A DNA stretch of 64,000 nucleotides, taken from a virus. Below the pieces are notes generated by a model, which had not been told where the DNA came from, searched no databases, and worked only from the letters and a program-made list of their open reading frames with translations. The DNA lies in the IMG/VR virus record IMGVR_UViG_3300029319_000003, positions 120,188 through 184,187 of that record; one strand, written 5' to 3'. Made by a program: the position numbers and the translations under genes. Of this stretch, positions 30,180 to 50,806 are shown piece by piece (the stretch's first letter is position 1; each line of letters begins with the position of its first letter).

Positions 30180-30278
30180 TGTTTTTATTTCCTCCGATAT
30201 TCAATCTCAAGATTGTAATAATCTACACTACTATATAGTCTCATGTATTTGTATTTGCCTGTGATGTGGTGACTTTCT

Positions 30279-31145
30279 TTATAGACCAAGATCTTCTAGT
30301 TCTTCGTCACCACCAAGGTCTTCTTCGCCACCTTCGACTTCGGCGTCTTCGCCTTCTTCATCGCCGGCTTCCATATCATCTTTTTCTTCTTCATACTCAG
30401 GAGTTGTAGGCTCTGGAAGTGTTTGAGACAGTTCGTCTTCAAACTTATCAAAATACAACTTAGCGTTCGTCAGAAGGTAATCATAAAATAAATTTTGATC
30501 TTCTTCGTTTGCTAACAGTGAGTATGCGTCAATAATTTGTTGTTCAATTTTATCAAAGGTTGCCTGAGCAAAGTTCCGTCCGGTTTGGTCTTCGCCATCA
30601 ATTCCGAACTCTTCACCTTCTTCACCTTCCCCACCAGAAATATCAATAAATGCTCCGTCAGCGTCTTCGCCTTCTGAATCGCCACCAGCGGCTAACGCTT
30701 CATCGTCCACTGCAAGTTCAATTTCAACTTCATCAAGCGCGACCTCTTCCATTGATAATGGCTCATCCATACCGGGTATATCGCCACCCTCACCGGCTGA
30801 CTTCGCGGCTTTAGCGGGGGCAATTGCATTCTGCATTGCGTTAACGATGTGAGCGCGGTATGACTCTCTTTGTGTAGGATCAGTAGTTAATTGCTTATAG
30901 TCAACTTCAATAACGGGTACGATCTTCTTAAGCAGATCCGCAAGCACATTGATACCAGTAGAAGCGTGAGGAGCCTCTGAGTCAGTTTCCTCAACAAGAA
31001 TGCTTCGGATTAAGGAACGCAACTTACGCTCTTGAATCAAGCGTGTGTCAACCTTATCTTTCCGACGCGACTTGACAACCTTAATTGCTCTTTTAATTTC
31101 TTCTCTGAGTTTCAACTCTTCAATGTATTTCGAACGCGAAATCAT
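30279..31145 (-). CDS. Highly acidic scaffold- or core-like protein, unknown
   Basis: 288 residues. A basic, helical N-terminus (SRSKYIEELKLREEIKRAIKVVKSRRKDKVDTR) precedes a central part rich in Asp/Glu/Gly and a strongly acidic C-terminus (EGEDAEVEGGEEDLGGDEE). The charge pattern resembles prohead core or internal proteins. It overlaps the 870-residue gene by ATGA. No catalytic motif seen. It could be packaged with the internal proteins upstream; this is inference. Confidence 0.75.
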   Translation of the reverse strand: MISRSKYIEELKLREEIKRAIKVVKSRRKDKVDTRLIQERKLRSLIRSILVEETDSEAPHASTGINVLADLLKKIVPVIEVDYKQLTTDPTQRESYRAHIVNAMQNAIAPAKAAKSAGEGGDIPGMDEPLSMEEVALDEVEIELAVDDEALAAGGDSEGEDADGAFIDISGGEGEEGEEFGIDGEDQTGRNFAQATFDKIEQQIIDAYSLLANEEDQNLFYDYLLTNAKLYFDKFEDELSQTLPEPTTPEYEEEKDDMEAGDEEGEDAEVEGGEEDLGGDEELEDLGL

Positions 31146-33754
31146 AATCTTTCTCCCGCTTGTGATGCACTATAATTAGGTGCCGCTTTCTCTAAAATCA
31201 AATTTAATACTTCTTCAATTATACTTTCCGATTCGTCCAATGCGCCCTTATAACTGACTTTTGGATATTCGCGTGCAAGTTCTAGAAGTTCCCGAATCGG
31301 CATATCAACTCTAATGACACCAAACATGCCACCCTCTTCCATCATCCGCACAGCCCACCATCTGTGGTGACCGTCAACAAGATAATTGTCACTTGAAATA
31401 ATTGCAGGCTTGCCAAATGCTAAATACTCTTGAGACTTCGCTTGCATCATGCCATCGACTTTTTCCATATTCAATTCTTTTTGAATTGGTTTAAGATCCG
31501 CTACAGAAACCTTGTCTGGCTTTGAGGCGACACCTTGAGACTCCAGCCAAGATCTAAAATCCTGTACATCTCCTGAAGAAATTTGTGGCATCTCTTCTCG
31601 CGCCACACCCAACGACTCGGGGAACTCTACAATGCCCGGTCCTTTAAGTTCTTTATAAACTCGGCGCACCTCTTCAGGGGCTTCTTCTTCGTGAGGGTCG
31701 TCAATGATTTCGCCGGATGAGCCAGAGGACACATCGTGTGCATCAGCAAATCCAGCCTGTTTATATTTCTTTTGCTTTTTGACAAATGCTTGCCCAGCAT
31801 ACCCCGAAACATTGCCGCTTTGAACATTGTTTATCTCATCCAAAGCCTCGTTGATCAACCGAAATAAATCGGCAGAGCGAAAGGATTCGGCAACTGCCTC
31901 CACCTCCGACTCTGGCTGTGGTTCATTAACCAAATCAGGGCGCACGATTTCCCACGCTAAATTAATTGCTTCGGGATTTTTCAATGGAGTGAACTTTGCA
32001 AACTGTTCTTTCTTACCGCATGCAATAAAGTCATCCCGCATTTGCGTCCCTGAGACGCCGCCCGCCATCATAGGAGTGTTGACCTGCTCAACGGTGATAC
32101 CAAGTTGCTTTTTGTCTGCCCATGCTTGTGCATTTTTAAAGCGGTGGTCGGATTCATCTTTCTCGCCTTTGCCCAACATTACTATTGTGCCTTGTTCCAT
32201 TTGCTCCATGAAGTCATAGGTTGATTTCACAGGACTCTCTGAAGTTGCAATAGAGGCAATGATTTTTCCTCTCAAACCATTTTCAGCGATGTAGAGTTTC
32301 CACAGTCTCAGCGATTGTTCTTTTTTAATTTCTAGTCGTGTTTCCCCACAGTGACCTGCTCGCGGCTTTGGCGAGATAAGCACATGAACCATGTCAGCAG
32401 CGGGTCGCCCATCCTTACCAGCATCTAAAAACCACTTAGCGCCCAAGAAGTGTCCTGCGTGTGGAGGTTTAAATCCACCGGGAACAATAGCAATAACGCG
32501 ACCACCAGTGGCTGTTTCATCGTCTCCTTCGGCTTCACCGAGAGCACGGGCTTCCCCGCGTCCGTATTTGAAAAGCCCAAGAATTTGGTTCATGGGTGCA
32601 AAGTTTCCTGTGAACTTATATGTGATACCATCCCAGTCAAAAACAAATCCTTCGCTGGCAGTTTCAACATTTTCAACAGCCTTCAACTTTTCCATTTGTT
32701 TCTGTAGGATCTTCATGTGGGCTGCATTATCTTCAGCCGCTTCAATTCCCTGAATAGCCTTTGCAACCTCGCCTTGCAATCGCTTAACTTCTTTTTTATT
32801 GTCAAGAATAAACGCGCTTTGCAGTCCCTTCAACATTGCCACGGCAAAATCGTGGATAGCGTTTTCTAGTGGTCGAATGATTTCTGATTTAATTTTACCA
32901 GTTTCCCCGACTAATTCACGAACAGCAACCTTGCCGTCTTTGTCCAAGCCTTTATAAACATCTGTAAGTTTGACACCTTTGACGCCAAGCATTCTCTTCA
33001 GCAGGAGCATTTGGTTTTGGTCTGGAAGATCGGGCAATCGTTGGTCAATGATGGGTCCAAGTTTGGTAACCATGTATTGATCGATGCTCATGCCATCGTT
33101 GCCGCCCATCTTGTCAATCGCAGCGATGACCGACTTAAGTGCCTCATCGTTGTCGAGTGCTTTAAGGTTGCGAATGGCGTTCATTTGGACTTGGTAGTCG
33201 TCACCCTGAATAGCCGTTTGCATGCGCTCTAGTGCCCCTCTAAGCGCTTCTACGTTGCCGCTAACGTCTTTGTCCGTTACCTGTCCAGTTTCTCTGTCAT
33301 ACTCGGTGTGACCTTGCTGATGGATGACCAATCCCTTCACGTCATAGTTTACAACATTGGGGCTTGCCGGATCCATCACCTCGGCGTTATACCAGATATT
33401 TGCATCGGCACCAAAGATTGCAGATTGAGCGTCTGGGTCCAAACTTGCTGCTGCTTTTTCGAATGCCTGAAAAGATTTTACGAAAGCATCGCGAAGATTT
33501 GGATTGTCGTGTGAAGCAAACTTGTCTGCTAAACCTTGTGCATCGAGCCCGCCGGCTTTGATGTTGCCTTTGTTTCGTGCAGCCTTCGCTTTGTTTTCAG
33601 GAACAGAATAGGAGATCATAATGTTCTGACCGTCCACCTTTTCGGTGCCCTCTAGTTCACCGGCAGATGCCTTGCTCAGAATATTTTTAATATCACCAAA
33701 TGTGAGATCACCATTATCATATAGGTGATTCATATGTCCCTGTAGGGCACCCAT
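31142..33754 (-). CDS. Three-domain fusion: ligase-type nucleotidyltransferase, HxGH nucleotidyltransferase, ParB-like
   Basis: 870 residues. Near the N-terminus GELEGTEKVDGQNIMISYS carries K39-V-D-G42, the lysine motif of DNA/RNA ligase-type nucleotidyltransferases, followed by ANIWYNAEVMDP. Around residue 430 AIVPGGFKPPHAGHFLGAKWFL is an NMNAT/cytidylyltransferase HxGH domain, completed by SGTQMRDDF (~570). Near residue 796 YLVDGHHRWWAVRMM is the signature of ParB/Srx-like domains. Long helical linkers join them. A nucleotide-transfer or NAD/cap-related protein is plausible; the order of domains is unusual. It sits with structural genes and may be a virion-injected enzyme. Confidence 0.75.
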   Translation of the reverse strand: MGALQGHMNHLYDNGDLTFGDIKNILSKASAGELEGTEKVDGQNIMISYSVPENKAKAARNKGNIKAGGLDAQGLADKFASHDNPNLRDAFVKSFQAFEKAAASLDPDAQSAIFGADANIWYNAEVMDPASPNVVNYDVKGLVIHQQGHTEYDRETGQVTDKDVSGNVEALRGALERMQTAIQGDDYQVQMNAIRNLKALDNDEALKSVIAAIDKMGGNDGMSIDQYMVTKLGPIIDQRLPDLPDQNQMLLLKRMLGVKGVKLTDVYKGLDKDGKVAVRELVGETGKIKSEIIRPLENAIHDFAVAMLKGLQSAFILDNKKEVKRLQGEVAKAIQGIEAAEDNAAHMKILQKQMEKLKAVENVETASEGFVFDWDGITYKFTGNFAPMNQILGLFKYGRGEARALGEAEGDDETATGGRVIAIVPGGFKPPHAGHFLGAKWFLDAGKDGRPAADMVHVLISPKPRAGHCGETRLEIKKEQSLRLWKLYIAENGLRGKIIASIATSESPVKSTYDFMEQMEQGTIVMLGKGEKDESDHRFKNAQAWADKKQLGITVEQVNTPMMAGGVSGTQMRDDFIACGKKEQFAKFTPLKNPEAINLAWEIVRPDLVNEPQPESEVEAVAESFRSADLFRLINEALDEINNVQSGNVSGYAGQAFVKKQKKYKQAGFADAHDVSSGSSGEIIDDPHEEEAPEEVRRVYKELKGPGIVEFPESLGVAREEMPQISSGDVQDFRSWLESQGVASKPDKVSVADLKPIQKELNMEKVDGMMQAKSQEYLAFGKPAIISSDNYLVDGHHRWWAVRMMEEGGMFGVIRVDMPIRELLELAREYPKVSYKGALDESESIIEEVLNLILEKAAPNYSASQAGERL

Positions 33755-33756
33755 CT

Positions 33757-34032
33757 TTAACTCTCCTTACTCTCTTCAAGAACCGAGAGTTTTTCTTCAA
33801 GCAAGGTCAACTTTTCTTCAGCAATTTGAACTTGCTCTTCTAACATTTTAACACGCTTGCGAACTTCTCGCAAGTGATTTTTTGCCATAATAATTCGGTT
33901 GCGCTCGGCTTTAGAGCGACCTTTCAGCGATTCAAGAAGATCTCCAATTGATTGGATGTATCCAGTAACAGTTGGCTTATCAGCCTTCCATTCGCCCAAA
34001 ATAAACTTCTTTGTCATTCTATCAAAATTCAT
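33757..34032 (-). CDS. Coiled-coil protein, unknown
   Basis: 91 residues with an N-terminal NFDRMTKKFILGEWKADKPTV stretch and a long heptad helix (REVRKRVKMLEEQVQIAEEKLTLLEEKLSVLEESKES). ATG at 34032 follows GGCGAGGA. A CTATTTATA string lies ~20 bases upstream. It directly precedes the 870-residue gene. A structural or adaptor role is inferred. Confidence 0.8.
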   Translation of the reverse strand: MNFDRMTKKFILGEWKADKPTVTGYIQSIGDLLESLKGRSKAERNRIIMAKNHLREVRKRVKMLEEQVQIAEEKLTLLEEKLSVLEESKES

Positions 34033-34067
34033 GATTGTGTCCTCGCCTATAAATAGTAAAAAATATT

Positions 34068-36113
34068 CTAACTGTTAGATCCTGTTAGAGTTAAACCGTC
34101 ATATCCCTTGGTAACAACATACGCTGACCCGCTCACTGTGTAACCACCGTTGTCAAACAACTTGATGTATGTAATGTTTGTAGTGCCGTGCGTAGCAACA
34201 GGAGTCATTCCATTTGGACCAGCATGATCTTGCGTTAATTTAAAATATCCATCGCCGGCAGAACTGTGATCATCTGCGGTAATTGCAACTTTAGTTTGAG
34301 CATTCATTGTTGAAACAACTCTGTCAGCAAGTTGCTCATATCCAGTTGCGCCGCCTGATAGACCTGATAGACCCACTTCGTAGTACCCATCACCATCAAT
34401 GACGGAGGCATCTGAAGTTGTAACCCCACCTTTGAACTTAAGGGTGATTGAGATGCCCCGAGCATCTTTAAAGGTCACGCGGCTGTTTGCATTGGGAAAA
34501 CCAGTAAATCTTAGAATCATTGTTGCGTATTCATATGAGGCGTTTCGAAGCGAACCCGGTCCTTTTCGGTAAAGAGAGAATGGCACCTGCTCGATAGCCT
34601 TAGTGCCACCAGCATCAGCGTGAGGAACGCCCTTAATGTGTTCTGCTGATAGTTGTTCAATCGTTGCATCACAAATATTGTATCTCTTCTCTTCGTCAAT
34701 ACAAGTTGGGCAATGCACGTTAATGGTTACAGTTGATGTAGATTCGAAACCACACTCAGTTTTTATTTTCCAAGGAATGGTGACACTGCCTGACCAGTTG
34801 ATAGGCGGGATATAAGTCATAATTCCAAGCGCAGATGAATTCGAACCGCTTCCGTGACATGGGTGTGGATCGGTTCCATCAGCGCCATAGCCGGTGTTTG
34901 AAGGTCGCGGCGAGCCTCCGGTCGGATAGTATACCCCATCAGCACAAGGCTCGGCGGTGGTGGCATCGGGACAAGAGAAATACAATTGTCCCAAATCCGA
35001 ACCGTTAGATGGATCCAAAGTTGGGTTAGAGGTGGTATGGAAACATTGCGCTTCCGCTCCTCCAACTTGCCGTCCGTCGAGAGCAAAGGTAATATAATTT
35101 GTAGTGGGATCTGTAGTGCCTGTTGTTGTTAAATTGCAATCCACATAAAATGATTGATCAAATGTGCATGGATACAGGTTACAACATGGAATTGCAACCT
35201 CGGCGGCACCACAACCATCAGTGCTAGCAAGATGTTCAAACTGCCATTCAGTCATTCTTGTAGATTGAAGTTGTTTGTCTTCTGCAATTGCATTTGATCC
35301 GGTATAATAATTCAACAGCGCTGGGTTTGTTGTCCACAAAAGAGAGCCGCATTTGGTAGTAGCAATAACCATATACTTGTATTTGTGAGATTGACACCCG
35401 TACTCACCGCCTGCTTCACAGTTTTTTGCAAGTGACCAGAATGTGCCGGGGGCTACACCATCTGTAATGCTGGCGAGCGAGTGCCCTTCGTCGTCTTCCG
35501 CTCCTGTACCTGATGATCCAGTTAGGTGATGCTTGGTTGGAATCTTGCCAACAAAATATGTGGTTCTGCCCATAGGATACGTTGCCCATGAGCCCGTACC
35601 TGCGGTGCCGGGGGCTACCTGTACAGACGTACTGTCTTGAAAGGTTGTTGCAGTAGAACCAGTTGTATGAACCAGTTGCCAGTTGCCTCGTCCATATGTA
35701 TTCCAATCTGCGGCTGTGACCCCTTCTCCATCATCAAATGGACCGGAACTGTGCAAACGCCAAATTTGAAGTTGGTCAATACTGTCTGTCAAGGGTGTTG
35801 GTCCCGACGTATCAGATGCCGGCGCAGACCAAGTTAAAGCGACAACAGCGTTGTATTCTACGCTTGTATCTTCTGGACAAGAGTCGGTATCGGATCTGAT
35901 AGTCGCTGAGAGCGTGCGGCACAATGGTAAAGGATTACAATAAATCGTACCGGCTTCAGAATAAACAGGGCTGGTATTCTCAACATCGTGGGCGTTTTCT
36001 ACTTTAGCGCCGAGGTTGTTGCAAACAACTTCGTGCTCTAAGGCTTTTAAATCGCCTTGCTCGGGACACTCAGAGCCAGCCCTAATGACCTTCGTTATAA
36101 CAGGTATCGACAT
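34068..36113 (-). CDS. Cys-rich fibre-like virion protein (681 aa)
   Basis: 681 residues. The sequence is Thr/Ser/Gly-rich with many Cys pairs (VVCNN..., YCNPLPLC, CADGVYYP, HCPTC). Middle strands such as WSGSVTIPWKIKTECGFESTSTVTINVHC look Ig-like. Residues ~530-660 hold the shared beta module (FTGFPNANSRVTFKDARG..., GYYEVGLSG). First of three adjacent large proteins of the same style, expected on the particle surface; adhesin function is inference. Terminal part ends GYDGLTLTGSN. Confidence 0.78.
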   Translation of the reverse strand: MSIPVITKVIRAGSECPEQGDLKALEHEVVCNNLGAKVENAHDVENTSPVYSEAGTIYCNPLPLCRTLSATIRSDTDSCPEDTSVEYNAVVALTWSAPASDTSGPTPLTDSIDQLQIWRLHSSGPFDDGEGVTAADWNTYGRGNWQLVHTTGSTATTFQDSTSVQVAPGTAGTGSWATYPMGRTTYFVGKIPTKHHLTGSSGTGAEDDEGHSLASITDGVAPGTFWSLAKNCEAGGEYGCQSHKYKYMVIATTKCGSLLWTTNPALLNYYTGSNAIAEDKQLQSTRMTEWQFEHLASTDGCGAAEVAIPCCNLYPCTFDQSFYVDCNLTTTGTTDPTTNYITFALDGRQVGGAEAQCFHTTSNPTLDPSNGSDLGQLYFSCPDATTAEPCADGVYYPTGGSPRPSNTGYGADGTDPHPCHGSGSNSSALGIMTYIPPINWSGSVTIPWKIKTECGFESTSTVTINVHCPTCIDEEKRYNICDATIEQLSAEHIKGVPHADAGGTKAIEQVPFSLYRKGPGSLRNASYEYATMILRFTGFPNANSRVTFKDARGISITLKFKGGVTTSDASVIDGDGYYEVGLSGLSGGATGYEQLADRVVSTMNAQTKVAITADDHSSAGDGYFKLTQDHAGPNGMTPVATHGTTNITYIKLFDNGGYTVSGSAYVVTKGYDGLTLTGSNS

Positions 36114-36131
36114 TTATTTACGCTCCTTCAA

Positions 36132-38654
36132 TTAAAATAACACTGTTGTTATCAAACTCGCAGATGGAGCAACACAACATGGTACAATTTTATAATAATA
36201 GTTTTTGTTTGCACATCCCGGTTCTGTTGGATTCGGTGCCATTGACCACTTTTGTTTTTCCGGTCCATCAATAAAATTGTCCCTTGGATCATTGTATGTC
36301 CATGTGGTAAAGTACCCGCCGGCAAAGCCGGTGCCGCTCGCACCACCCTGCGTGGCATCATACACTGTTTTATCAGTTGTGGTTTGACCGGTTGTTGTGC
36401 CATCAGGGGGAGGAGAACCGGGAAGATATTTATTACCACTAGGGGTGACATTATAATATTGACCACAACCCGGCCTCATCCAATATGAGCCAGACAAAGG
36501 ATCTATTGTATTATACTTATTACCAATATGAACCCACGATGAGTCATCCTCGGGAGTTTGTGTTCGCCAAACCTCAAATCTGTGATAGCATTCACCAACG
36601 GTTCTCCAGCCTACATCAATTGTTCCATATTTATCAAGTTCGGTGCAGTCATAACTATCAGTAAATACGTCAGTGACGGGTGCGGGCGGCATAACTACTT
36701 TAATAGAACCCGTGGCTCCGCAACACCCCTCTGGATCCCAAACTGTATATTCGTAATATTCGACGCCACAACAAGGATCCGCATTCCGTGCTCCTTCAGC
36801 AATGGCGTTAGCAGCACGCGAACCTTCTCCTTCTTTCCGATCAGGGCAATCGCTAAAGTTATCGTCACAGCAGCAGTTATTTTCAAATGTGAAAATGGGA
36901 GCACCAGTCACTCCAAAAAGTTGTTTCTCCATCCCAGCCATGCCAGTGATTGCCGGGTTGATAATGTTTGTCCGTGCAGACCACTGCATCCAATTTACAT
37001 CTGAGACGCCGTTAACATTCGCAAAACTCAAAGCCTGCCAGCGCTTGAAAACTGGACCGGGATCGGTCATCATCAATTGCACACAGTTAGTGTTATTTGG
37101 GTTGACTTTTGCTACTATTCTTAATCCCGTGTTAGTTCTATGCTTTAAGTCAACTGTCTCCCTAACATCGACATGATTAATTGCTTGGATTACTTTTGTC
37201 ACTGTTGCGGCTGTGGTGCTCACACCATTCATAGGGATATATACAAACTTTAAATTTCTTTCAACTTCAGTTTTGGAAGTGTCGAAAATAAATTTTAGAT
37301 ATGTTCCATACTGGTCCTCTAAAATAAAATGATCGTTGTTATTTGGAACCTGAGAGAAGTCAAAATTAACCTGCGGAAATGTAGTACTCGCGCCCCAAAC
37401 ATCAAACCTTTCGGGAGGAGGAATTGGGATTGGCCACTTTTCAAGCATATCCAGAATTCGCTGGTTTACCCAGTCTTTTCTTGTAATGCGATCCCAGTCT
37501 GGCTGCTTGGTTTCCCAAGGTTCCCATTTTTCCCACTTGGGTATATCATCATTATTGCCAAATCTGCCGTCCCAAGGAACCTGTTCTCTTCGCATGCCAG
37601 ACTCTGGATTAAAGTTATCCTGCGTCTCTTGTTGACCGTGAACCGACCAGCACTGCTCATCTTTCTGGCTTTTATATGTGATATTATAATCCATATGATA
37701 CAAGGGGTAATCAAACATCTTGATCCCAACGCCATACCTATCTGTGACTGAGTATCCATGCAACTGAACATGATCCAGTAGGTTAATACTAAAAGAGGTG
37801 GTTTCAGAGCAAGATGCGGTGACTTCAATATCGCTAGCGGTAATATATTTACAACACTCGACGTTCGCGACAACACAATCAGATTTTGTTTGGGCTTCTT
37901 GTGGCACATAGGCTTGACCATTATAAACAAACATCATTGCCTGCACCATATAGCCAAACTTCTTCTGAGTACCTTGAGGGCAGCAGCCCATTTCAGCAGA
38001 TAAATCTTCAACAAACTCGGCAATGAATTGTCCAGAGAAAGTACTGTTGGCGTGGTCAATTCCGCTAGCCTTGAGTATCTTGTTGAATGTACCCTTGCAA
38101 TCATTGTACCATTCAACATGATTTGGGGCGATAAAATAAGATGCTTCCGTACCATCGGCTGGTGCGTCAATAATATCTGCAACTCGCACATATCCATACT
38201 TTTGGATTTCTTCTTCGCTACACGGATTTGCTGTTATACTCAAAGGGGGAATTTTACTAACATCGAAATTTTTCCTTACAGACCAACTGTCGCTACGAAG
38301 TCTTACTTTTGTTACAGTCGGATCATTCGCACCATATGATGGGTTATAGGGAACTTGCCCGCCCTGAGCAACAACCCGCTCTTCTTCACAGCAAGTTTGG
38401 CGTCCGTCTGGGCACACTGTGACTGGTGTACGATAAACTCTATATCCAAAAAATGATTTCTGATTTTCGCCTGAACCTTGTACGAGGTCGCTGGCATCAT
38501 CCCACTGCCACTGAAGTGCAATGTGCATAGGGTCGCTGCCGGCACAAGCAAAATTTGAAGCATGGGTTTTATAATCAAGAACACGAAGATTGGTGGTATA
38601 ATTCCAATCTGTTTTGCACAATAAGTTTTCTGCTGAAGGGTTTGCTATTGCCAT
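36132..38654 (-). CDS. Cys-rich fibre-like virion protein (840 aa)
   Basis: 840 residues, with many adjacent cysteines (QTCCEEE, MGCCPQG, VECCKY, NNCCCDDN, PCCGVEYY, EGCCGA, VPCCVAP). These may be disulfide-stabilised or metal-binding loops, which is unusual for cytoplasmically folded phage proteins. Residues ~436-555 have the shared module (FSQVPNNNDHFILEDQYGTYLKF). The C-terminal part again looks like repeated Ig/fibronectin-like strands. Follows the 991-residue gene with a 9-base gap. Confidence 0.78.
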   Translation of the reverse strand: MAIANPSAENLLCKTDWNYTTNLRVLDYKTHASNFACAGSDPMHIALQWQWDDASDLVQGSGENQKSFFGYRVYRTPVTVCPDGRQTCCEEERVVAQGGQVPYNPSYGANDPTVTKVRLRSDSWSVRKNFDVSKIPPLSITANPCSEEEIQKYGYVRVADIIDAPADGTEASYFIAPNHVEWYNDCKGTFNKILKASGIDHANSTFSGQFIAEFVEDLSAEMGCCPQGTQKKFGYMVQAMMFVYNGQAYVPQEAQTKSDCVVANVECCKYITASDIEVTASCSETTSFSINLLDHVQLHGYSVTDRYGVGIKMFDYPLYHMDYNITYKSQKDEQCWSVHGQQETQDNFNPESGMRREQVPWDGRFGNNDDIPKWEKWEPWETKQPDWDRITRKDWVNQRILDMLEKWPIPIPPPERFDVWGASTTFPQVNFDFSQVPNNNDHFILEDQYGTYLKFIFDTSKTEVERNLKFVYIPMNGVSTTAATVTKVIQAINHVDVRETVDLKHRTNTGLRIVAKVNPNNTNCVQLMMTDPGPVFKRWQALSFANVNGVSDVNWMQWSARTNIINPAITGMAGMEKQLFGVTGAPIFTFENNCCCDDNFSDCPDRKEGEGSRAANAIAEGARNADPCCGVEYYEYTVWDPEGCCGATGSIKVVMPPAPVTDVFTDSYDCTELDKYGTIDVGWRTVGECYHRFEVWRTQTPEDDSSWVHIGNKYNTIDPLSGSYWMRPGCGQYYNVTPSGNKYLPGSPPPDGTTTGQTTTDKTVYDATQGGASGTGFAGGYFTTWTYNDPRDNFIDGPEKQKWSMAPNPTEPGCANKNYYYKIVPCCVAPSASLITTVLF

Positions 38655-38663
38655 TGTTTAATC

Positions 38664-41639: not shown

Positions 41640-41718
41640 TTAAATTTCCACCGTCATTTACTTTAATGTGCCGTTCACGCTTCTAATTAGTTATTTATTC
41701 GTTTATTTCACAAATAGA

Positions 41719-41754
41719 AACACCCTCTAAACACAGAAAGTGCGAGAGGGTGTT
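41719..41754 (-). terminator. Rho-independent terminator after the 839-residue gene
   Basis: Minus strand: AACACCCTCT pairs with AGAGGGTGTT (10 bp), 16-base loop, followed by TCTATTTGT. It ends the transcript of the internal-protein operon before the fibre genes. Confidence 0.85.
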
Positions 41755-41791
41755 CATATAATTTCTACTGTTAAGTGCGAGAATAGATCAC

Positions 41792-44311
41792 CTACTTGAT
41801 TTTAAACCATTGACGCATCAGTCTTTCGTTTAGAGCGGTTGCCCTAATTGCATATTGATCATCAACTGTTTCTTCCATCGGGTCCATCCCCATGAAATCT
41901 TCGATAGCAGCCATGATCTCTTCAGGAGCATAATTCCCTTCGACACCGGGTTGCGCCATGACCGCTTGCATAATTTCTTGCTCACCAGCACCGGGGTTAG
42001 CCTCAAGAACGTCTTCAATGGTGAACTTGAGTTGATTCATATGCTCGTCACCCTCAACACCTGCCATTGGATCGTCTTGCCAATCTTCTTCCAACGCTCC
42101 ACTGTGAAGCGCGTCAAGGTACTTCTGATCTGGTGCTTTGACTGGTAGCGGATCTTCACCGCGAGCCATCAGAACGGCGTTGTATGCCTCCATATAGGCT
42201 TCGTCGCCCTGTCCAATCTTTGATGGGGGGTTGCCATCTTCAGCGTCAATCTTTCCATATTCAGCCATTGAGCCACCTTCGTACATCTTCTTTTTCTTTT
42301 TATCGTCGCGCTTGTACTTGCCTTCACTCATCAATGAATATTCGTCTCCGAAATCCTCGTCTGGGATCAGTCTAAGTGACTTCTGCTGAACCAGTGCATC
42401 AAGGAAAGCCTTAACTTCTTCATGCATAATGTCTGGATTTTCTTCGACAACGACTGCAATTAGTTCGTCTGCCGAAATTGTGCCGTCCCTCTTCATTGGA
42501 GTATTGTCAACGACAGAACTCCACATTCTTTCAGGTTTGTCACCGTCAATGACGTTTTCTTGTATATTATAATCGGCTTTGGCTTGTTCTGAATCGAGAT
42601 ATGCCGCTGCCTCGGCAGGGTCATAGATTTTCGGGGATTTTGACCCAGCCCATAAAGACGCTTTTACCCCATCTGCACCAGCCGCCATACCAACGTATCC
42701 TTTTGTTCCATCTTCAAAATAGGCTATTACATCAGTGCCATCGTCTTCCGTTTTGACCAACTTCTTCTGCATTTGTTTCGCCATCGCATCAACAAATTTC
42801 TCCCGAGCGTCACCATCACCGAACATGTCTCTGTCGGAGTAACCACCGTCTTCGTCGTCGTAGTCACCGAATCCGTCAATTTCTTGCAATGAGCCTTCTG
42901 AAAGAGCAGCAAGGACCATTTTTTCAATAGACTTTCTTAGAGACTCATCCTTCTTCTTGTCTTCAACTTCATCTCCAACATCCTCATCTTCTTTGCCGCT
43001 GCGAAGTCCAGCAAGATCAGATGGTTCAATCTTTCCATCATCATCGAGATCTAGTTCTTTCTGAGCCGGGGAAAGATCGCCCTGTGGTTCGTCTTCGTCT
43101 CCGTCATCTTCTTGAATCATGGTCGAGCCGATGAAGTTGAGCAACTTTGAAACATTGGCATTATTAAAGCGAGCCTTGTTTGTTTCATTTAGCGCATCAT
43201 AGACAGTCACCAGTTCTTGAGCCTGTGCCTGAGAAACAGGAATACCATCTACTTTTTCGGTTGCGTTTGCTTCCGAAAGATTGCTTGCAATCCAACGAAG
43301 ATTATTGATTCGTTCGCCACCGACGGGCTTGGTTGTTTCTTTCAACATCTTGATCACTTCAGGATCAAAAAGGTTGACGCCAGCCTCTTGAAGTCGGCTC
43401 ACGATTTCTTCTGCAATATATTTGTTGATATTCATTTTGGTATCCTCTTGTCTATTAAATAGATTATTATTCTCAACTAGTAATCCTTTTTTTCCATTTT
43501 CTTGAGCCTGTGGTTTTGGCGTCTTTGGGGTTGGATTAATTTTTTGTTCAAACTGGGTTTGACTGTAATACTTGCTACCCCATGTGTCGTCGTCGTCCAA
43601 CTCTTTCATTATTTGAATTGTTTGAACCTCTCCAGTGGGAGGGTGCTTCTTTGACAACTGAGCAACGAGGTCGTCCCACGCCTGTACTAATTTTTCAGGG
43701 TCTGATGGGGGGATTTGACCTTTTAGCCAATAAACGAATGACATGATCTCGCGGGGCTCTTCCGTCCACCACTCTTCCATATTTGGAAAGCCATTCATAC
43801 CTTCAACAACTTTTGACTCGTTGATAAATCCCCAACTTTTAAGCAAGCGGTGGTTTAATCGCGTGTGCTTGTGACCATATAAATCTTTGCCTTCATAAAT
43901 CGCACCCGGTTGCATTTGAGATTTAACAGTGTCTTCCCAGTCTCGGAAACACAGATTACCCTGCTCATATGCCTCTCTTTCCATTTCTCTCAGATGCGAG
44001 TCGTTTTGAGCATATCCCTGCTCTCCCACATTGGAAGCGCCATCAAACGCGCCACGGCAGTTCTGAGCGTGATGTACCAACTCATGAGACACTGAGCGCA
44101 TAATGTCTTTGATATGACGACCGGTTGTAAATACGGTGACCTCGCTTGTTTGAGGGTTATAGTATGCTGTCTTGCCAAAAGGCTTCTCTGCGTTTTCAGC
44201 ATCATTCACAAAGTGGATCTTTGCATCACGATCAAACCCGTAGGTCTTCTTCGCATATGGATAAAAACTTTTAGTTAATTTCTGGAGCAGTTTTGATTTA
44301 AGATTCGGCAT
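41792..44311 (-). CDS. Large internal-type protein with HExxH peptidase domain and EF-hand
   Basis: 839 residues. Residues 1-130 contain VSHELVHHAQNCRG (HExxH at 76-80) of a zinc peptidase-like fold. At residue 293 a Met starts MNINKYIAEEIVSRLQEAG, a leader of the type beginning several neighbours, and this internal ATG (43435) has AGAGGA upstream, so the C-terminal part may also be made separately. Near residue 420 ELDLDDDGKIEPSDLAGL is an EF-hand/dockerin calcium loop. The rest is acidic and helical. Ends in ATALNERLMRQWFKIK. A processed, particle-packaged protein is plausible. Confidence 0.78.
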   Translation of the reverse strand: MPNLKSKLLQKLTKSFYPYAKKTYGFDRDAKIHFVNDAENAEKPFGKTAYYNPQTSEVTVFTTGRHIKDIMRSVSHELVHHAQNCRGAFDGASNVGEQGYAQNDSHLREMEREAYEQGNLCFRDWEDTVKSQMQPGAIYEGKDLYGHKHTRLNHRLLKSWGFINESKVVEGMNGFPNMEEWWTEEPREIMSFVYWLKGQIPPSDPEKLVQAWDDLVAQLSKKHPPTGEVQTIQIMKELDDDDTWGSKYYSQTQFEQKINPTPKTPKPQAQENGKKGLLVENNNLFNRQEDTKMNINKYIAEEIVSRLQEAGVNLFDPEVIKMLKETTKPVGGERINNLRWIASNLSEANATEKVDGIPVSQAQAQELVTVYDALNETNKARFNNANVSKLLNFIGSTMIQEDDGDEDEPQGDLSPAQKELDLDDDGKIEPSDLAGLRSGKEDEDVGDEVEDKKKDESLRKSIEKMVLAALSEGSLQEIDGFGDYDDEDGGYSDRDMFGDGDAREKFVDAMAKQMQKKLVKTEDDGTDVIAYFEDGTKGYVGMAAGADGVKASLWAGSKSPKIYDPAEAAAYLDSEQAKADYNIQENVIDGDKPERMWSSVVDNTPMKRDGTISADELIAVVVEENPDIMHEEVKAFLDALVQQKSLRLIPDEDFGDEYSLMSEGKYKRDDKKKKKMYEGGSMAEYGKIDAEDGNPPSKIGQGDEAYMEAYNAVLMARGEDPLPVKAPDQKYLDALHSGALEEDWQDDPMAGVEGDEHMNQLKFTIEDVLEANPGAGEQEIMQAVMAQPGVEGNYAPEEIMAAIEDFMGMDPMEETVDDQYAIRATALNERLMRQWFKIK

Positions 44312-44852
44312 TCAAGTCTCTCCCTGAAATCATTTTCATTAATTGATAGGCATCATCGCCGTCAAGTTCTGACTGGGCAGCGGCTTGTTCGAATCCCACA
44401 CTCTTGGTGGTCTTTAAAAAATCTTTTGCTTGGTCGCGGTCGCCACCAAAGAATTCAGCAATCGAAGCAAGGAATTGCTCTTCAACACTGGGTTGACTGT
44501 CAATGCCAAAACGCTGCATAGGACCGCCCTGAGAGCCGCTGTGACCGCCTCCAGCGGAGGCAGCGTGTGTTGAGGCTACCCGAGTTTCGTCAATTTTTTC
44601 TGGCAGTCCTTTGTGGGAAGTGCTAGCAAAATCTTCAGCGTCCTTTGCTTTCATATTGCGGGCTACATCTTCAACTTCTTTCGAAGCACAATCTTTATAT
44701 CCACTCTTCTTGCAAGCATGAACCATACCCATGAACTCTTGTTGATTTTTTGATTTAGCCTTTTCTTGTAGGATGGAACGTACCATTACCTCAATCAGTC
44801 TTTGCAAACGTGACTCAGAGATTCGAAGTTTTGGCTGCGCTCGCAATTTCAT
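44298..44852 (-). CDS. Leader-type internal protein, unknown (184 aa)
   Basis: 184 residues. The N-terminus KLRISESRLQRLIEVMVRSILQEKAK matches the short amphipathic leader repeated in this block. A Cys-containing helix follows (MGMVHACKKSGYKDCASKEVEDVARNMK), then a Gly/Ser linker and a helical tail. It overlaps the next gene by 14 bases and the previous one by ATGA. No known domain. Confidence 0.75.
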   Translation of the reverse strand: MKLRAQPKLRISESRLQRLIEVMVRSILQEKAKSKNQQEFMGMVHACKKSGYKDCASKEVEDVARNMKAKDAEDFASTSHKGLPEKIDETRVASTHAASAGGGHSGSQGGPMQRFGIDSQPSVEEQFLASIAEFFGGDRDQAKDFLKTTKSVGFEQAAAQSELDGDDAYQLMKMISGRDLNAES

Positions 44853-47008
44853 TTTTCAGATAGAATCCGCTTTACTTCAGCAATAATCTTTTTTGTTCTT
44901 GCCTCTGCCAACCCCTGCCTAAACTCGTTGGCACCGTCTTGATGCCCCGCTCGGCAAGCGGCGAAGTCAGAAACAGGACCGTCTCTGAGGGCGGTTTTAA
45001 CATCTACGCCCTTTCTGCCCATTTCAAAGCAGCGTGAATAGGCTTTCTCGTTTGCTTCTTGTTGCTCTGGGCTCACCTCTTCTTCAATGTCTCGTCTGGT
45101 GTTTACTTGTTGGGCTTGTGCTTGGGCTTGTAATACTGGAGTAATTGCTTCTGGAATTTCTTGAGCCAACATCATAAGAATATCCATGTGAGAATTACCC
45201 TTGCCGTGCAAAGAGCGAATAATTTCTTCTGCTTGCATCGCGCCTTCACGATAGCCTTCGTCAATCTTTGGCGTACCTTCAACTTTCTTAAGATGATCTG
45301 CTTTGATAATTGCAGCCTCGCCATTTTCATCGACCACCATGACCGCGCCGTCTGCACGAACCTCGGTGACCTTATATGCCTTGTCGTTGCGAATGTCATT
45401 AACTTGATCACCCTTTTCGAACATTGAGGCAGCACCTTCTTGCATGTGTGACCGAACCATATCGCGGATCGTATTCAAAGAAATTTTAATTGTCTTGTTG
45501 GCAGGAGCGGGAAGAGCCTCCATTGTAAGCGAAGCAATTTCTTCACGGTCAATATACATGTCCTTGCCTCTGTCATAAAATTCACCCTCCTTGGGGTCAT
45601 AATAAAGAACTGCACCAGACCTAAACTGGAATGGTCCTTCCAAGCCGGGGAGTGGTCCCATATCACCCTTGAGGTTGGGTACCTTGCCCTTGTCCATGAC
45701 AGACTTGTGGAACTCTCGATCTTCGTCAGAAAGTTTCCCTTCAGCAAACATCTCATCAGGCAAGCCGCCGACAACATCTTGAATGTCAGCGCCGGCGTAA
45801 ACTCTACCGGCAGAATCTTGAATTGAATCGCCGGATTCTAATTCTCCATAAAGCCAAGTAAGTAATTCACCCGGCATGTTCTCCACATCAGCCACATGAT
45901 CGCCGGTAAACTGAATGTCTGGGAGCATATAAATTGTGCCCCCATACTTCTTATCTTCTCTGGATTGGATTTGAGAAACATCAAAGCCGCCCATTGCTTC
46001 CTGCATAAACTTGGCTCCAACAGCGATTCCATCTTCAGTCATTTCCCAAGTATCACCAAAAGCGTCACTCAGTTGCCCCTGTAGTTGTGGGTCTGATTCA
46101 AGGCGTGCAATAGACTCAGGGCTCAATACAATTTCGAAACCGCCCATGTCATCTTCGTAAACTTCAGCCTCGGGAAAAATGGCAGTTGCTTTTGCAATCA
46201 TGCTGTCGCCTGAGTCTTCCTGCATCGGATTCTGTGTGTGTTGATACCCTAATACATATGGACCAATTTCTCTGAAATCTTCAGCAGGGTCAATGTCGAA
46301 CTTGGATGGTTTGCCAATAAAATACTTATCGCCAACAACAAGGACACCGGACAAGACGCGAGCATCGAACGCTTCATCCTTGAGAGCGTTTGCAATCTGC
46401 ATTAACTGCCCGCCTTGTTCAACGACGGTCAAAGCAATATCTTGTACTTGGTCCATTTCAGGGTCTTGGTTCCAGCCGCCTTGGTTGCGACTTGATTCGG
46501 TTTCTCCACCAGCGGCTTGCGTTTCGTGGTCGCCATATTCTTCTAGTTGTTGGCGAATGAAGCCCTTTAGTTGATCGATTGTAACTCTCACTGAGTTAAT
46601 GCCTCCAACAGAATTTTCATCCAAATAGTCACTCTCGCCTCCGATTGGTGGATCTGTTGGGCGCTTCATGGGTTCTGCTGGTCTTCCAAGAGACTCCTTT
46701 GCCGCATCAATAACTTTCCTAATGACTCCACCAGATACATAATCAGGCAAGATAGCCTCCAACGCGCTTTCGGGGTTGCTGCCTGCCTTTTGTTTAAATT
46801 GGTCACTATAGCGGCTCAACATTTTAAACTCTGGTTCTGACGCCATCAACTCTGCAATCTTTTCTATCAGTTCAACATCAGGCTTCGGAGCGGGACTACG
46901 AGGGACATATTCGCCTCGTTCTTCTTTCATATTATAACCTGAATTAATATCCTTCTCTTGCAGTTGCTGACGCACCAGTGCCCGCAATTGATCTACTGTA
47001 ACTTTCAT
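44849..47008 (-). CDS. Multi-leader internal protein, unknown (719 aa)
   Basis: 719 residues containing three copies of the leader-like helix: MKVTVDQLRALVRQQLQEKD (1-20), VRVTIDQLKGFIRQQLEEYG (~140-159) and TIKISLNTIRDMVRSHMQEG (~504-524). Each begins a new segment, as if separate genes had been joined. The segment between ~440 and 500 reads GDMGPLPGLEGPFQFRSGAVLYYD. A Lys-rich C-terminus ends in TKKIIAEVKRILSEK. Function unknown; packaging or assembly role inferred from the leader. Confidence 0.75.
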   Translation of the reverse strand: MKVTVDQLRALVRQQLQEKDINSGYNMKEERGEYVPRSPAPKPDVELIEKIAELMASEPEFKMLSRYSDQFKQKAGSNPESALEAILPDYVSGGVIRKVIDAAKESLGRPAEPMKRPTDPPIGGESDYLDENSVGGINSVRVTIDQLKGFIRQQLEEYGDHETQAAGGETESSRNQGGWNQDPEMDQVQDIALTVVEQGGQLMQIANALKDEAFDARVLSGVLVVGDKYFIGKPSKFDIDPAEDFREIGPYVLGYQHTQNPMQEDSGDSMIAKATAIFPEAEVYEDDMGGFEIVLSPESIARLESDPQLQGQLSDAFGDTWEMTEDGIAVGAKFMQEAMGGFDVSQIQSREDKKYGGTIYMLPDIQFTGDHVADVENMPGELLTWLYGELESGDSIQDSAGRVYAGADIQDVVGGLPDEMFAEGKLSDEDREFHKSVMDKGKVPNLKGDMGPLPGLEGPFQFRSGAVLYYDPKEGEFYDRGKDMYIDREEIASLTMEALPAPANKTIKISLNTIRDMVRSHMQEGAASMFEKGDQVNDIRNDKAYKVTEVRADGAVMVVDENGEAAIIKADHLKKVEGTPKIDEGYREGAMQAEEIIRSLHGKGNSHMDILMMLAQEIPEAITPVLQAQAQAQQVNTRRDIEEEVSPEQQEANEKAYSRCFEMGRKGVDVKTALRDGPVSDFAACRAGHQDGANEFRQGLAEARTKKIIAEVKRILSEK

Positions 47009-47625
47009 TTGTCCTGCTCTCCTTCTTTGTTAGGATCTTGTTTTCCCTGCGATGCAACTTGTTTTGCAAATTTAATTAAAATGTTTTTCACAGCGGTTGG
47101 CTTGATACTCGGGTGTTGTGCCGCCAAATTAACAAACTCTTTAAAGAGTCCTTCGAATTCATCGGCGTTACTAATCTTCTTAAACAGGGGTGCCATCTGT
47201 GAAGATTCAAGTTTATCGACTGCTTTCTGAACGTCTTTGCCACCCTGCTGCTTTTCTTCCCCGCCTTCAGCGGCTTCTTCTGCTTCATTAAAAGATGAAT
47301 ACCCGCTGGGCATTTCCATGTGCAAGCCAATATATCTGTCTGCTGCTTCTTGTGGGGAGCGACCTTGACCTATAAAGTGGTCCATCATCATCTGAAAGTC
47401 CTCACCAATCTCTACTGCGTCTGGGTCTGCTTTAATCAGCGATATAACTTGTTGGTAAAATTGATCACCACCTTCGACCTCTTTAATTGTCTTAGAAATC
47501 AAATCAGCAATAAAGGCATTCGAAATCTGATTGTCGGTGGGTTGTGTTGTCTGCAACTGCTTCGCCACCATTTCTCTCAGCAGTTTACTAGTAAGTTTGT
47601 TCTTACTTGGCTTTTTTAATTTCAT
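47005..47625 (-). CDS. Leader-type internal protein, unknown (206 aa)
   Basis: 206 residues. Basic start MKLKKPSKNKLTSKLLREMVAKQLQTTQ in the style of its neighbours, helical body (FIADLISKTIKEVEGGDQFYQQVISLIKAD) and Glu/Lys-rich end. Overlaps the 719-residue gene by ATGA. No catalytic motif. Confidence 0.75.
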   Translation of the reverse strand: MKLKKPSKNKLTSKLLREMVAKQLQTTQPTDNQISNAFIADLISKTIKEVEGGDQFYQQVISLIKADPDAVEIGEDFQMMMDHFIGQGRSPQEAADRYIGLHMEMPSGYSSFNEAEEAAEGGEEKQQGGKDVQKAVDKLESSQMAPLFKKISNADEFEGLFKEFVNLAAQHPSIKPTAVKNILIKFAKQVASQGKQDPNKEGEQDK

Positions 47626-47667
47626 TACTATTCCCTCGTAAACTCAAACTGAGTTTTCTTTTTCCGG

Positions 47668-48399
47668 TCAGTCTTTTTCTTCTGCGAGGACTGTGAGCCA
47701 CTCTTCAAAGGTCTGATCTTCGTTTTGTTGACCGCCTTTCGCAGCCTTTTCTAACGCGAACACGCGACGGGTCAACCTAACAATCTGCTCGATGCCGCCA
47801 ATCTGCTTAAAAGCATTTTCAATTTGGAAAACCCTCTGGGTCAAATTTTGAATCTGCTTAGTATTTGCAGATCCTGCAACTTCTCCCTTGGCTCTCCCTT
47901 GTGACTTGACTCGTACTCCGGCGAATTCATCTTCTTCAAGCACTGAATAAACCATATCTAGATAACTCTGCCGCTCACTATAAGCACTCATTAGCGCATC
48001 GGCAGCGTCTTCCAGTCCTGACGCTTTCAGTGCGTCTCCCACTGCTCTAGCCTTCTGGGGGTATCCTCCAAGTGCATTGCCAAGTTTCTCAGCGTGCTTG
48101 ACTATCTCTGGGCTGGCTACATCGGTTGAACGGAATGGCGGCTTCAAAACTGCTGTAGCCGCATCGGACAACCCAACCTTTTCCAGAGCGCCTGCAATAC
48201 GTTGTGCCTGCGCGGGATTCAATTCGGCACTGAGCGGCTTGATAATCTGGGCAATCTGATCAGACGTGGCTACATCCTCTCTCAGTTTACGAACTTTATT
48301 AATCTCATTAATAATGAGCGCTCGCACACGCTGCTCGCCTTTAATTTTATCAACCTCCTCAGAGATGATTTGATTTAGTTTATCTGCCGTAATCTTCAT
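47668..48399 (-). CDS. Leader-type internal protein, unknown (243 aa)
   Basis: 243 residues starting MKITADKLNQIISEEVDKIKGE, one of the clearest copies of the leader. The body is Ala-rich and helical (ELNPAQAQRIAGALEKVGLSDAATAVLK) with two repeated halves (ALGGYPQKARAVGDALKASGLEDAADALM), and the C-terminus is coiled (NLTQRVFQIENAFKQIGGIEQIVRLTRRVFALE). Possibly a multimeric core protein. Confidence 0.78.
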   Translation of the reverse strand: MKITADKLNQIISEEVDKIKGEQRVRALIINEINKVRKLREDVATSDQIAQIIKPLSAELNPAQAQRIAGALEKVGLSDAATAVLKPPFRSTDVASPEIVKHAEKLGNALGGYPQKARAVGDALKASGLEDAADALMSAYSERQSYLDMVYSVLEEDEFAGVRVKSQGRAKGEVAGSANTKQIQNLTQRVFQIENAFKQIGGIEQIVRLTRRVFALEKAAKGGQQNEDQTFEEWLTVLAEEKD

Positions 48400-48400
48400 T

Positions 48401-48664
48401 TTAAATTCCAGCCTGTGGTGCCGGCTCGACGCCCTGCATTTGTGCGAGGAGATCGGTAATCATGTTATCAATCATTTCAAGACGCTCAGACACCGCCGGG
48501 TCAGCAACCATGCCGCCAACACGGACGATTTCATCGCCAATTTTTTCAATCTGAGTGATCATTCTGGAGTGATCATCGCCTTCAGCGATTGCATCTCGCT
48601 CACTAAGCACTGCTTGGTATTCCTGCTTAATGAATTGCTTTAACTGCTCTTGTGTGATTTTCAT
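48401..48664 (-). CDS. Leader-type small internal protein (87 aa)
   Basis: 87 residues starting MKITQEQLKQFIKQEYQAVLSE, the archetype of the leader in this window. A second amphipathic helix (MITQIEKIGDEIVRVGG) and a short tail follow. ATG at 48664 sits directly after the AGGAGT-like ribosome site of the preceding stretch. Function unknown. Confidence 0.8.
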   Translation of the reverse strand: MKITQEQLKQFIKQEYQAVLSERDAIAEGDDHSRMITQIEKIGDEIVRVGGMVADPAVSERLEMIDNMITDLLAQMQGVEPAPQAGI

Positions 48665-48672
48665 TTTTATAT

Positions 48673-48858
48673 TTACTCCTTTCGTTCGTGAATGACAACC
48701 ATAATTTCTGCGCGAAGTTGCTTGAGTGCCTTCATTTGTTCAACAGCGACCTTACGCAGCCGCTTACCAGCCGATGCGTTTCCACGATCAAACTTATCTG
48801 CGTCTGCCATTGCTTCTTCAAGCGCAGCAAGGATTTCTTCTAATTGTTCTCTAATCAT
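48673..48858 (-). CDS. Small helical protein (61 aa)
   Basis: 61 residues, MIREQLEEILAALEEAMADADKFDRGNASAGKRLRKVAVEQMKALKQ..., all helical. ATG at 48858 has GGAGGA upstream. A histone-like or DNA-associated Lys/Arg stretch (AGKRLRKVAVEQMKALKQLR) is visible. It resembles the small phage proteins that accompany internal proteins; no family named. Confidence 0.75.
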   Translation of the reverse strand: MIREQLEEILAALEEAMADADKFDRGNASAGKRLRKVAVEQMKALKQLRAEIMVVIHERKE

Positions 48859-49181
48859 TTTTTATTCCTCCGTTGGGGCGAATTGTTTTCTTGCATTGGT
48901 GGTCCACCACAACCACCGCCGCCATATTTATCGAACACCGCAGAAAGTTCATGATAATGCTTTCCAGCCGGTGTGTCGGGGTTTCTTTCAGTCCAAGCAT
49001 CGAGAATTGCCTGAAGATCAGACAATAGTGAATCAACTTCCTCTTCGGCTGTTGCCTCTGGACCTGCGGCAATTGCTACCGCTGGACCATCTGGTATGGG
49101 GCTCGGCATAGGCATTCCCATGCCCATTTCATTAATTTGACTACGCACCAAATGCGTAAGGTACTCTTCTGTAATCTTCAT
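48855..49181 (-). CDS. Leader-type small protein (108 aa)
   Basis: The ATG at 49181 (MKITEEYLTHLVRSQINEMGMG) is preferred over a TTG two codons upstream; it has GGAGAG eight bases before. The leader again opens the frame. Pro/Gly-rich and then helical (VDSLLSDLQAILDAWTERNPDTPAGKHYHELSAVFDKYGG). C-terminus CGGPP then basic. First gene of the internal-protein operon. Confidence 0.78.
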   Translation of the reverse strand: MKITEEYLTHLVRSQINEMGMGMPMPSPIPDGPAVAIAAGPEATAEEEVDSLLSDLQAILDAWTERNPDTPAGKHYHELSAVFDKYGGGGCGGPPMQENNSPQRRNKK

Positions 49182-50202: not shown

Positions 50203-50421
50203 TTATTTTTTGTTTTCCATCGTTGCCAACTGTACTAAATGGTGAGTGCTTGTCCAAGCAACATGCCCCTGCGGCTTAGACCAGTGAACCTTCACTTCGC
50301 TGTATGGCTTCGGAACGGATGCACCTGCACTTGCATGCGGCGATACATACTTTTCGATGACAATTCCCACACCGTAATCAGGAATGCCAGCAAGGTATCG
50401 AACCAGATCTCCTACTTGCAT
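50203..50421 (-). CDS. KOW/SH3-like small protein (family F1)
   Basis: 72 residues. Pattern of the repeated family: MQVGDLVRYLAG at the start, then GVGIVIEKYV, then SEVKVHWSK, then a hydrophobic end. It resembles a five-stranded SH3/KOW barrel of the kind found in NusG C-termini and ribosomal proteins, hence a possible RNA, polymerase or protein binder; this is inference. It follows the 50421 gene with an overlapping start. Confidence 0.75.
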   Translation of the reverse strand: MQVGDLVRYLAGIPDYGVGIVIEKYVSPHASAGASVPKPYSEVKVHWSKPQGHVAWTSTHHLVQLATMENKK

Positions 50422-50660
50422 TAGCCGACCACCTCTCCGTAGCGTGCAAAGTTAGTGGCGCGGATAGTTTGGGTTACACCGCGTTGGAAGTGGATACGAA
50501 TAAGATAATCTGCACGATTAGCACGTTTACGAGCCTCGATAACAACTCCAGTGTCGTAGACCCATTCAAAGGCAAGTTCGCCACGGGCAGCGCGTTCTCG
50601 TCCGCGTTCGGGATGAACAACGGCGCGACGATAGCGAACAACATCTCCAACATTAACCAT
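50421..50660 (-). CDS. KOW/SH3-like small protein
   Basis: 79 residues from ATG at 50660 (MVNVGDVVRYRRAVV), chosen because it follows the stop of the 42-residue gene and fits the family start. The middle is Arg-rich (HPERGRERAARGELAFEWVYDTGVVIEARKRANRAD) and the end IRIHFQRG. More basic than its relatives, which may favour nucleic-acid binding. Confidence 0.7.
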   Translation of the reverse strand: MVNVGDVVRYRRAVVHPERGRERAARGELAFEWVYDTGVVIEARKRANRADYLIRIHFQRGVTQTIRATNFARYGEVVG

Positions 50661-50662
50661 GA

Positions 50663-50791
50663 TTAAAACCCTTCCACGCCGCAGCGGGCGTAACACTCAA
50701 GCAATGATTCGTACTCCACCAGCCACGCCCGACGGAGGATGATACCTCCCGGCTGGAGTTCAAGAGGAGTGATTTGAACGAACTTAGTCAT
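50663..50791 (-). CDS. Small protein (42 aa), unknown
   Basis: 42 residues from ATG at 50791 (MTKFVQITPLELQPGG...). Start context and tight spacing with both neighbours (its stop sits 3 bases before the next ATG) support translation, but codon evidence is thin. Contains two Cys in the C-terminal half (ECYARCGVEG). Confidence 0.5.
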   Translation of the reverse strand: MTKFVQITPLELQPGGIILRRAWLVEYESLLECYARCGVEGF

Positions 50792-50806
50792 GATTAAAAA
50801 CCTTTC

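What the first reader, a model, noticed from the sequence alone, without database searches (positions are those of the whole stretch)
30279..49181. Repeated amphipathic leader (MKIT-type) on many virion-region genes
At least seven leaders are nearly alike: MKITQEQLKQFIKQE (48401 gene), MKITEEYLTHLVRSQINE (48855), MKITADKLNQIISEE (47668), MKVTVDQLRALVRQQLQE (44849), plus LRISESRLQRLIEVMV (44298), internal copies at residues 140 and ~504 of the 719-residue protein, and MNINKYIAEEIVSRLQE inside the 839-residue protein. T4 internal proteins begin with a short capsid-targeting leader (MKTYQEFI.EA) cut by the gp21 protease (established). The leader here looks like an independent version marking cargo for packaging into the head; this is inference.
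Basis: partly seen in the sequence, partly recalled or inferred. Interest (0 to 1): 0.7.

Follow-up and report, generated by a model that had tools for sequence, protein, structure and literature searches.

The report
Leader peptides loading proteins into heads
Many unrelated proteins of this T4-like virus, and of many marine relatives, start with one of a few short leader peptides that look like address labels for loading cargo into the virus head, and the virus's own head protease probably cuts them off; this makes the proteins a virus carries into a cell predictable from sequence, although no virion has yet been examined to prove it.

Summary
The repeated MKIT leader is real. The record also holds nine genes with a second leader (MKLLMENWRRFLxE) and a gp21-type protease.

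Evidence for gp21 cleavage: positions left free in the scan carry L/I-x-E, the T4 gp21 motif, near residue 18 or 22, with A/G/S after it; conservation stops there; L/I-x-E but not E-x-L/I is depleted in the mature parts; all 21 leader-bearing records of 130 kb or more encode gp21; homologous cargo joins exactly at the predicted cut. A third leader copies the scaffold protein's C-terminal tail (RMQKLAGI).

Best explanation: capsid-targeting propeptides that work like T4's CTS but differ in sequence and are used far more widely. Packaging and cleavage are inferred, not shown. Sequence homology with the T4 CTS is not met, so this is a new variant of a known kind.

The parts
49128..49181 (-). KIT leader of g161 (MKITEEYLTHLVRSQINE), predicted cut after INE
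   Evidence: no further L/I-x-E in the mature protein
48855..49181 (-). g161, small leader-bearing protein
   Evidence: no Pfam family above cut-off, no PHROG family
48673..48858 (-). g160, histone H1-like Hc1 family protein without KIT leader, inside the cluster
   Evidence: PF07432 E 2.1e-10, above cut-off
48599..48664 (-). KIT leader of g159 (MKITQEQLKQFIKQEYQAVLSE), predicted cut after LSE at residue 22
48401..48664 (-). g159, small leader-bearing protein
48334..48399 (-). KIT leader of g158 (MKITADKLNQIISEEVDKIKGE); no clear L/I-x-E at the usual place
47668..48399 (-). g158, leader-bearing protein
47554..47598 (-). KIT-like segment of g157 (residues 10-24), no cut site seen
   Evidence: p 0.005; borderline
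47005..47625 (-). g157
46955..47008 (-). KIT leader of g156 (MKVTVDQLRALVRQQLQE), predicted cut after LQE
46538..46591 (-). internal KIT copy of g156, residues 140-157 (VRVTIDQLKGFIRQQLEE); GTG codon preceded by GGAGG, like a fused gene start
45437..45487 (-). weak internal KIT-like copy of g156, residues 508-524 (KISLNTIRDMVRSHMQE)
   Evidence: not significant alone
44852..44914 (-). C-terminal KIT-like helix of g156 (GLAEARTKKIIAEVKRILSEK)
   Evidence: third best internal hit in the proteome
44849..47008 (-). g156, 719 aa, probably several fused leader-cargo units
   Evidence: PHROG 13298 at residues 423-490
44763..44852 (-). leader of g155, residues 1-30 (..LRISESRLQRLIEVMVRSILQE), predicted cut after LQE
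   Evidence: the DUF3008-type domain starts at residue 32
44298..44852 (-). g155, DUF3008-type cargo
   Evidence: PF11450 E 6.9e-5, just under its cut-off; PHROG 30268 E 1.1e-16
43385..43435 (-). weak internal leader-like copy in g154 (MNINKYIAEEIVSRLQE), ATG preceded by AGAGG
   Evidence: not significant alone; DNA
41792..44311 (-). g154, 839 aa, HExxH-like N-terminal segment
   Evidence: sequence; no family above cut-off
30279..31145 (-). g148, KIT-like helix at residue 36 ending ILVE
   Evidence: p 0.02; borderline

Best explanation
The MKIT (KIT) leader is a removable head-targeting propeptide. During prohead assembly an amphipathic N-terminal helix docks a cargo protein into the scaffold core (inferred). 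The T4-type prohead protease gp21 then cuts after L/I-x-E at the end of the leader, leaving the mature protein free in the head with the DNA, to be delivered to the next host (inferred). The genome uses at least two other leaders for what looks like the same purpose: MKLLMENWRRFLxE (ENW) on larger, often enzymatic proteins, and an RxxMxKLA(G/N)I type that copies the C-terminal tail of the scaffold. KIT is used mainly on small proteins of unknown function; internal copies arise where leader-cargo genes fused. Shown here by computation: leader sharing on unrelated bodies, the L/I-x-E signal, its depletion in the bodies, and the link with gp21. Not shown: presence in virions, actual cleavage, docking partner.
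For: gp21 protease in the record (PF03420 E 1.9e-36); its capsid protein aligns ELLRE|Y with the T4 gp23 site FLTE|A, and relatives also keep L/I/V-x-E there. KIT leaders in IMG/VR: 209 proteins, about 192 mature clusters. With residues beyond 15 unselected, [LIVMF]xE ends at residues 17-23 in 129 of 173 against 15-26 in control windows; shuffles give 33 +/- 5; A/G/S follow; information falls to about 0.1 bit after residue 22. Second leader: 85 of 119 unselected cases have it at 12-14. Depletion of [LI]xE in mature parts, log2 ratio -0.61 (KIT) and -0.67 (ENW) against +0.06 to +0.09 in controls, permutation p 0.00025 each. gp21 in 21 of 21 leader-bearing records of 130 kb or more, 0 of 8 random records; no HK97-type S78 protease in the 21. 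Same cargo under different leaders, joined at the predicted cut. KIT and ENW genes co-locate: 13 of 119 ENW loci carry KIT, random loci 0 of 55. Scaffold tail RMQKLAGI reused as N-terminal leader, 35 of 35 followed by [LI]xE. T4 facts: PMC9026906.
Against: No virion, protease or packaging data. The KIT leader is not detectably homologous to T4's CTS. g158 and g157 lack a clear L/I-x-E, and the window's own KIT proteins show no depletion of internal sites (25 observed, 22.9 expected), though they are few. The KIT core IIKEE itself contains I-x-E, so the exact cut is uncertain. A KIT-like docking helix in the scaffold was sought and not found. The random gp21 controls are mostly smaller records. 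Cultured T4-like phages HTVC008M and S-SSM7 lack these leader families.
Confidence: 0.8

Rival explanations
1. The leader is a permanent docking helix for some assembly (scaffold, nucleoid, replisome) and is not cleaved; L/I-x-E is just the end of the helix.
For: Amphipathic pattern; KIT-like helices also occur at C-termini (g053, g156, a Mel-JY01 protein).
Against: L-x-E keeps its internal spacing while shifting register (residues 18, 19, 21, 22); selection against internal L/I-x-E, not E-x-L/I, in the bodies; association with gp21. T4 Alt also has a cleaved C-terminus (PMC9026906), so C-terminal copies do not speak against cleavage.
Confidence: 0.12
2. The leader is a membrane-targeting amphipathic helix that takes proteins to the host membrane.
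For: Short N-terminal amphipathic helices can do this (own knowledge); T4 proheads detach from the membrane after proteolysis (PMC9026906).
Against: Does not explain L/I-x-E, its depletion elsewhere, or the restriction to gp21-encoding phages.
Confidence: 0.04
3. The similarity reflects a DNA-level element at gene starts (translation enhancer or recombination site) rather than a peptide.
For: Leaders sit at gene starts and on swapped cargo.
Against: Synonymous codons vary freely in the leaders; C-terminal and internal copies exist.
Confidence: 0.01
4. Chance or convergent amphipathic N-termini in K/E-rich proteins.
For: The weaker copies (g154, g156 residue 508) are within chance.
Against: 0 expected for the main copies; only 11 stretches in 84,980 cellular genomes carry the pattern, in MAGs and multi-copy in most, against at least 120 in IMG/VR.
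Confidence: 0.02

Closest known systems
T4 capsid targeting sequence (CTS) of internal proteins IPI, IPII, IPIII and the Alt propeptides
   Same: Short N-terminal leader shared by otherwise unrelated proteins, ends in L/I-x-E, gp21-family protease encoded; T4 IPII and IPIII have no L/I-x-E besides the leader one
   Different: KIT sequence and length (18-22 residues) differ from MKTYQEFIAEA; at least three leader types instead of one; far more cargo; packaging not yet shown
Propeptides of head proteins in giant phages (phiKZ, SPN3US) cut by gp21-like proteases
   Same: Cleavage C-terminal to a glutamate after a short motif; many internal head proteins (PMC9026906)
   Different: Different phage lineage; whether a shared short leader family occurs there was not examined
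Scaffold protein gp22 of T4-like phages
   Same: Its C-terminal tail RMQKLAGI recurs as an N-terminal leader on other proteins
   Different: The leader-bearing proteins are not scaffolds; KIT itself was not found in scaffolds

Membership tests
T4-type capsid targeting sequence | Short N-terminal leader shared by unrelated proteins | tested here: met
T4-type capsid targeting sequence | Leader ends in L/I-x-E | tested here: met
   Most KIT and ENW leaders; not clear in g158 and g157
T4-type capsid targeting sequence | gp21-family prohead protease encoded by the same phage | tested here: met
T4-type capsid targeting sequence | Sequence homology with MKTYQEFIAEA | tested here: not met
   KIT shows no likeness by eye beyond the L/I-x-E end; ENW has only a loose likeness (leaders)
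T4-type capsid targeting sequence | Mature protein avoids further protease sites | tested here: inconclusive
   Met in the IMG/VR sets (p 0.00025 each), not in the window's own few KIT proteins
T4-type capsid targeting sequence | Protein is in the virion and has lost the leader | not testable with these tools
   Needs virion mass spectrometry
T4-type capsid targeting sequence | Leader sufficient to package a fused protein | not testable with these tools
   Needs reporter fusion

The most novel reading that the evidence does not exclude
Marine T4-like viruses use a small address code of interchangeable leaders (KIT, MENWRRFLxE, and a copy of the scaffold tail, LAGI), each with its own docking site in the prohead and all removed by gp21, to load a large and fast-changing set of proteins, including many enzymes, into the head for delivery to the host.
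Probability: 0.5. Interest if true: 0.85.

Novelty: new variant of a known kind. Interest (0 to 1): 0.72.

Why it matters
It would let anyone list, from sequence alone, the proteins that uncultured marine T4-like viruses probably carry in their heads and inject. In the sample examined this already covers some 280 different protein bodies, among them NUDIX hydrolases, kinases, nucleotidyltransferases, acetyltransferases and peptidases. Leaders of this kind could also serve as packaging tags in laboratory phages.

Tried and rejected
KIT-like docking helix in scaffold proteins: only 1 of 9 significant, dropped. DNA element: codons vary. Relatives of the 719-aa protein in IMG/VR: none found. Leader consensus in cultured phages by tblastn: only Microcystis phage Mel-JY01 and LR756508 for one consensus, nothing for three other queries; sensitivity for 20-residue queries is low. 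Literature search for the leader strings and for the idea in marine metagenomes: nothing; only open-access full text was searched. The weak copies in g154 and at g156 residue 508 are not counted as evidence. Structure prediction was not run because the window's cargo has no useful alignment.

Full report
OBSERVATION. The window is 120188-184187 of a 184187-base virus record. I called genes over the whole record (g-numbers below). A four-seed PSSM finds six copies (g159, g161, g156 twice, g158, g107) with none expected by chance, and g037 with 0.4 expected. A PSSM trained on other viruses only puts g107, g159, g158, g037, g156, g161, g148, g155 and g157 first among 202 genes. g037 lies between two genes (g036, g038) of a second leader family, and g107 is next to g106, the gene beside the portal (by position probably the large terminase subunit). 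The internal copies in g154 and at g156 residue 508 are weak; g156 residue 140 is strong and looks like a fused gene start, a GTG preceded by GGAGG.

SECOND LEADER. An unbiased comparison of all N-termini shows nine genes at record 9.9-19.5 kb starting M-K-x-x-x-E-N-W-R-R-F-L-x-E (ENW), with 40 pairs in all scoring 40 or more against none in shuffles. In three of the nine the leader is preceded by a longer called start, but an in-frame ATG sits exactly at the leader. The same kind of test on T4 recovers IPII and IPIII with MKTYQEFIAE.

PROTEASE. T4 gp21 cuts after L/I-x-E, and T4 internal proteins carry 10-19 residue targeting propeptides that it removes; an aspartate at the cut position blocks processing (PMC9026906). 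This record encodes a gp21 homologue (g100, E 1.9e-36), a Gp23 capsid protein (g092, E 7.6e-73) and a T4-type portal. Aligning the capsid proteins puts ELLRE|Y of this phage on FLTE|A of T4, with L/I/V-x-E kept in LR756508, Mel-JY01 and immuto; the 19 IMG/VR capsid proteins found near gp21 genes show the same place (read by eye).

CENSUS. KIT: 209 proteins in about 192 clusters that share no sequence words beyond the leader. ENW: 153 matches in 89 clusters. The aligned sets have a consensus only in the leader. Cellular genomes: 11 stretches in 84,980 species, all in MAGs and most with several copies, as expected for binned virus contigs. LR756508, a 484-kb phage genome, has about two dozen KIT leaders.

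CUT SITE. In 173 KIT representatives [LIVMF]xE ends at residues 17-23 in 129, against 15-26 in later windows; with residues 16-30 shuffled the mean is 33 and the maximum 51 in 2000 trials, observed 126. The site shifts register but keeps L-x-E spacing; A, G and S are common after it; information drops after residue 22. In ENW leaders outside the selecting pattern 85 of 119 have it at 12-14, and some of the rest carry it shifted by one residue, as YLLTE. In the mature parts L/I-x-E is depleted and L/I-x-D enriched relative to the reversed motifs, in both sets and not in other genes of the same contigs. This is what exposure to gp21 would select, and it does not depend on the leader itself. The window's own KIT proteins are too few to show it.

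CARGO. ENW proteins often match enzyme families (NUDIX, AAA_33, protein kinase, zeta toxin, M23 peptidase, GNAT, nucleotidyltransferase). KIT proteins are small (median 110 aa against 209) and nearly without families; two of 110 are DUF3008, the family of g155. Cargo switches leaders: a domain of g026 (ENW) occurs in LR756508 directly after a KIT leader ending VLFE, and the g155 domain starts right after SILQE while its S-SSM7 relative starts at residue 3 without leader; several mature ENW and KIT proteins are homologous.

ASSOCIATION. gp21 was found in all 21 leader-bearing records of 130 kb or more and in 29 of 42 of 90 kb or more; S78 in none of the 21; gp21 in 0 of 8 random records, only one of them above 100 kb, so the control is small. 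KIT and ENW co-occur in 13 of 119 ENW loci and in no random locus.

THIRD LEADER. Scaffold proteins of these phages end in R(M/W)xxLAG(I/L). The same motif starts other proteins, and in 35 of 35 such cases [LI]xE follows within eight residues, against 1-2 in control windows. In this genome g055 starts MAKKTLNEGTIRRFMKLANIGALTE and the scaffold g093 ends RMQRLAGITKKK. This suggests that a leader can copy the scaffold's own contact, which is inference.

LIMITS. The census is a capped sample; clusters are crude; the KIT core contains I-x-E at residue 14, fixed by the pattern; no experiment was done.

Noticed in passing
record 9891-19506 (outside window), genes g025-g031, g036, g038: Nine genes with the MENWRRFLxE leader, among them HExxH-containing sequences (g027, g031).
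   Followed up: yes
record 74757-75821 (g093), 31848-32402 (g055), 17248-19005 (g036): LA(G/N)I motif at the scaffold C-terminus, at the C-terminus of g036 and as an N-terminal leader on g055.
   Followed up: partly
window 50203-63400 and the left end of the record: Many small proteins sharing V-G-D-L-V-R near the N-terminus, a large paralogous family.
   Followed up: no
window 28917-41639 (g147, g151, g152, g153): By eye, large repeat-containing proteins share a module like FPNNxExFxLxDxxGxxxxFxFKxGVxTxDG.
   Followed up: no
window 48673-48858: Histone H1-like Hc1 protein inside the leader cluster.
   Followed up: no
window 31142-33754 (g149): Large protein with cytidyltransferase-type PHROG matches, conserved in LR756508 and Mel-JY01.
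   Followed up: no
LR756508.1 156507-158102: gp21 homologue matched in two pieces about 1 kb apart in one open frame of 576 aa; an in-frame insert, possibly an intein.
   Followed up: no
L012 and record NC_055915 (Flavobacterium phage immuto): Cultured phage with its own leader families MENFDLKKFLVENKLT and MKKSQLRQIIKEAL, a practical test system.
   Followed up: partly
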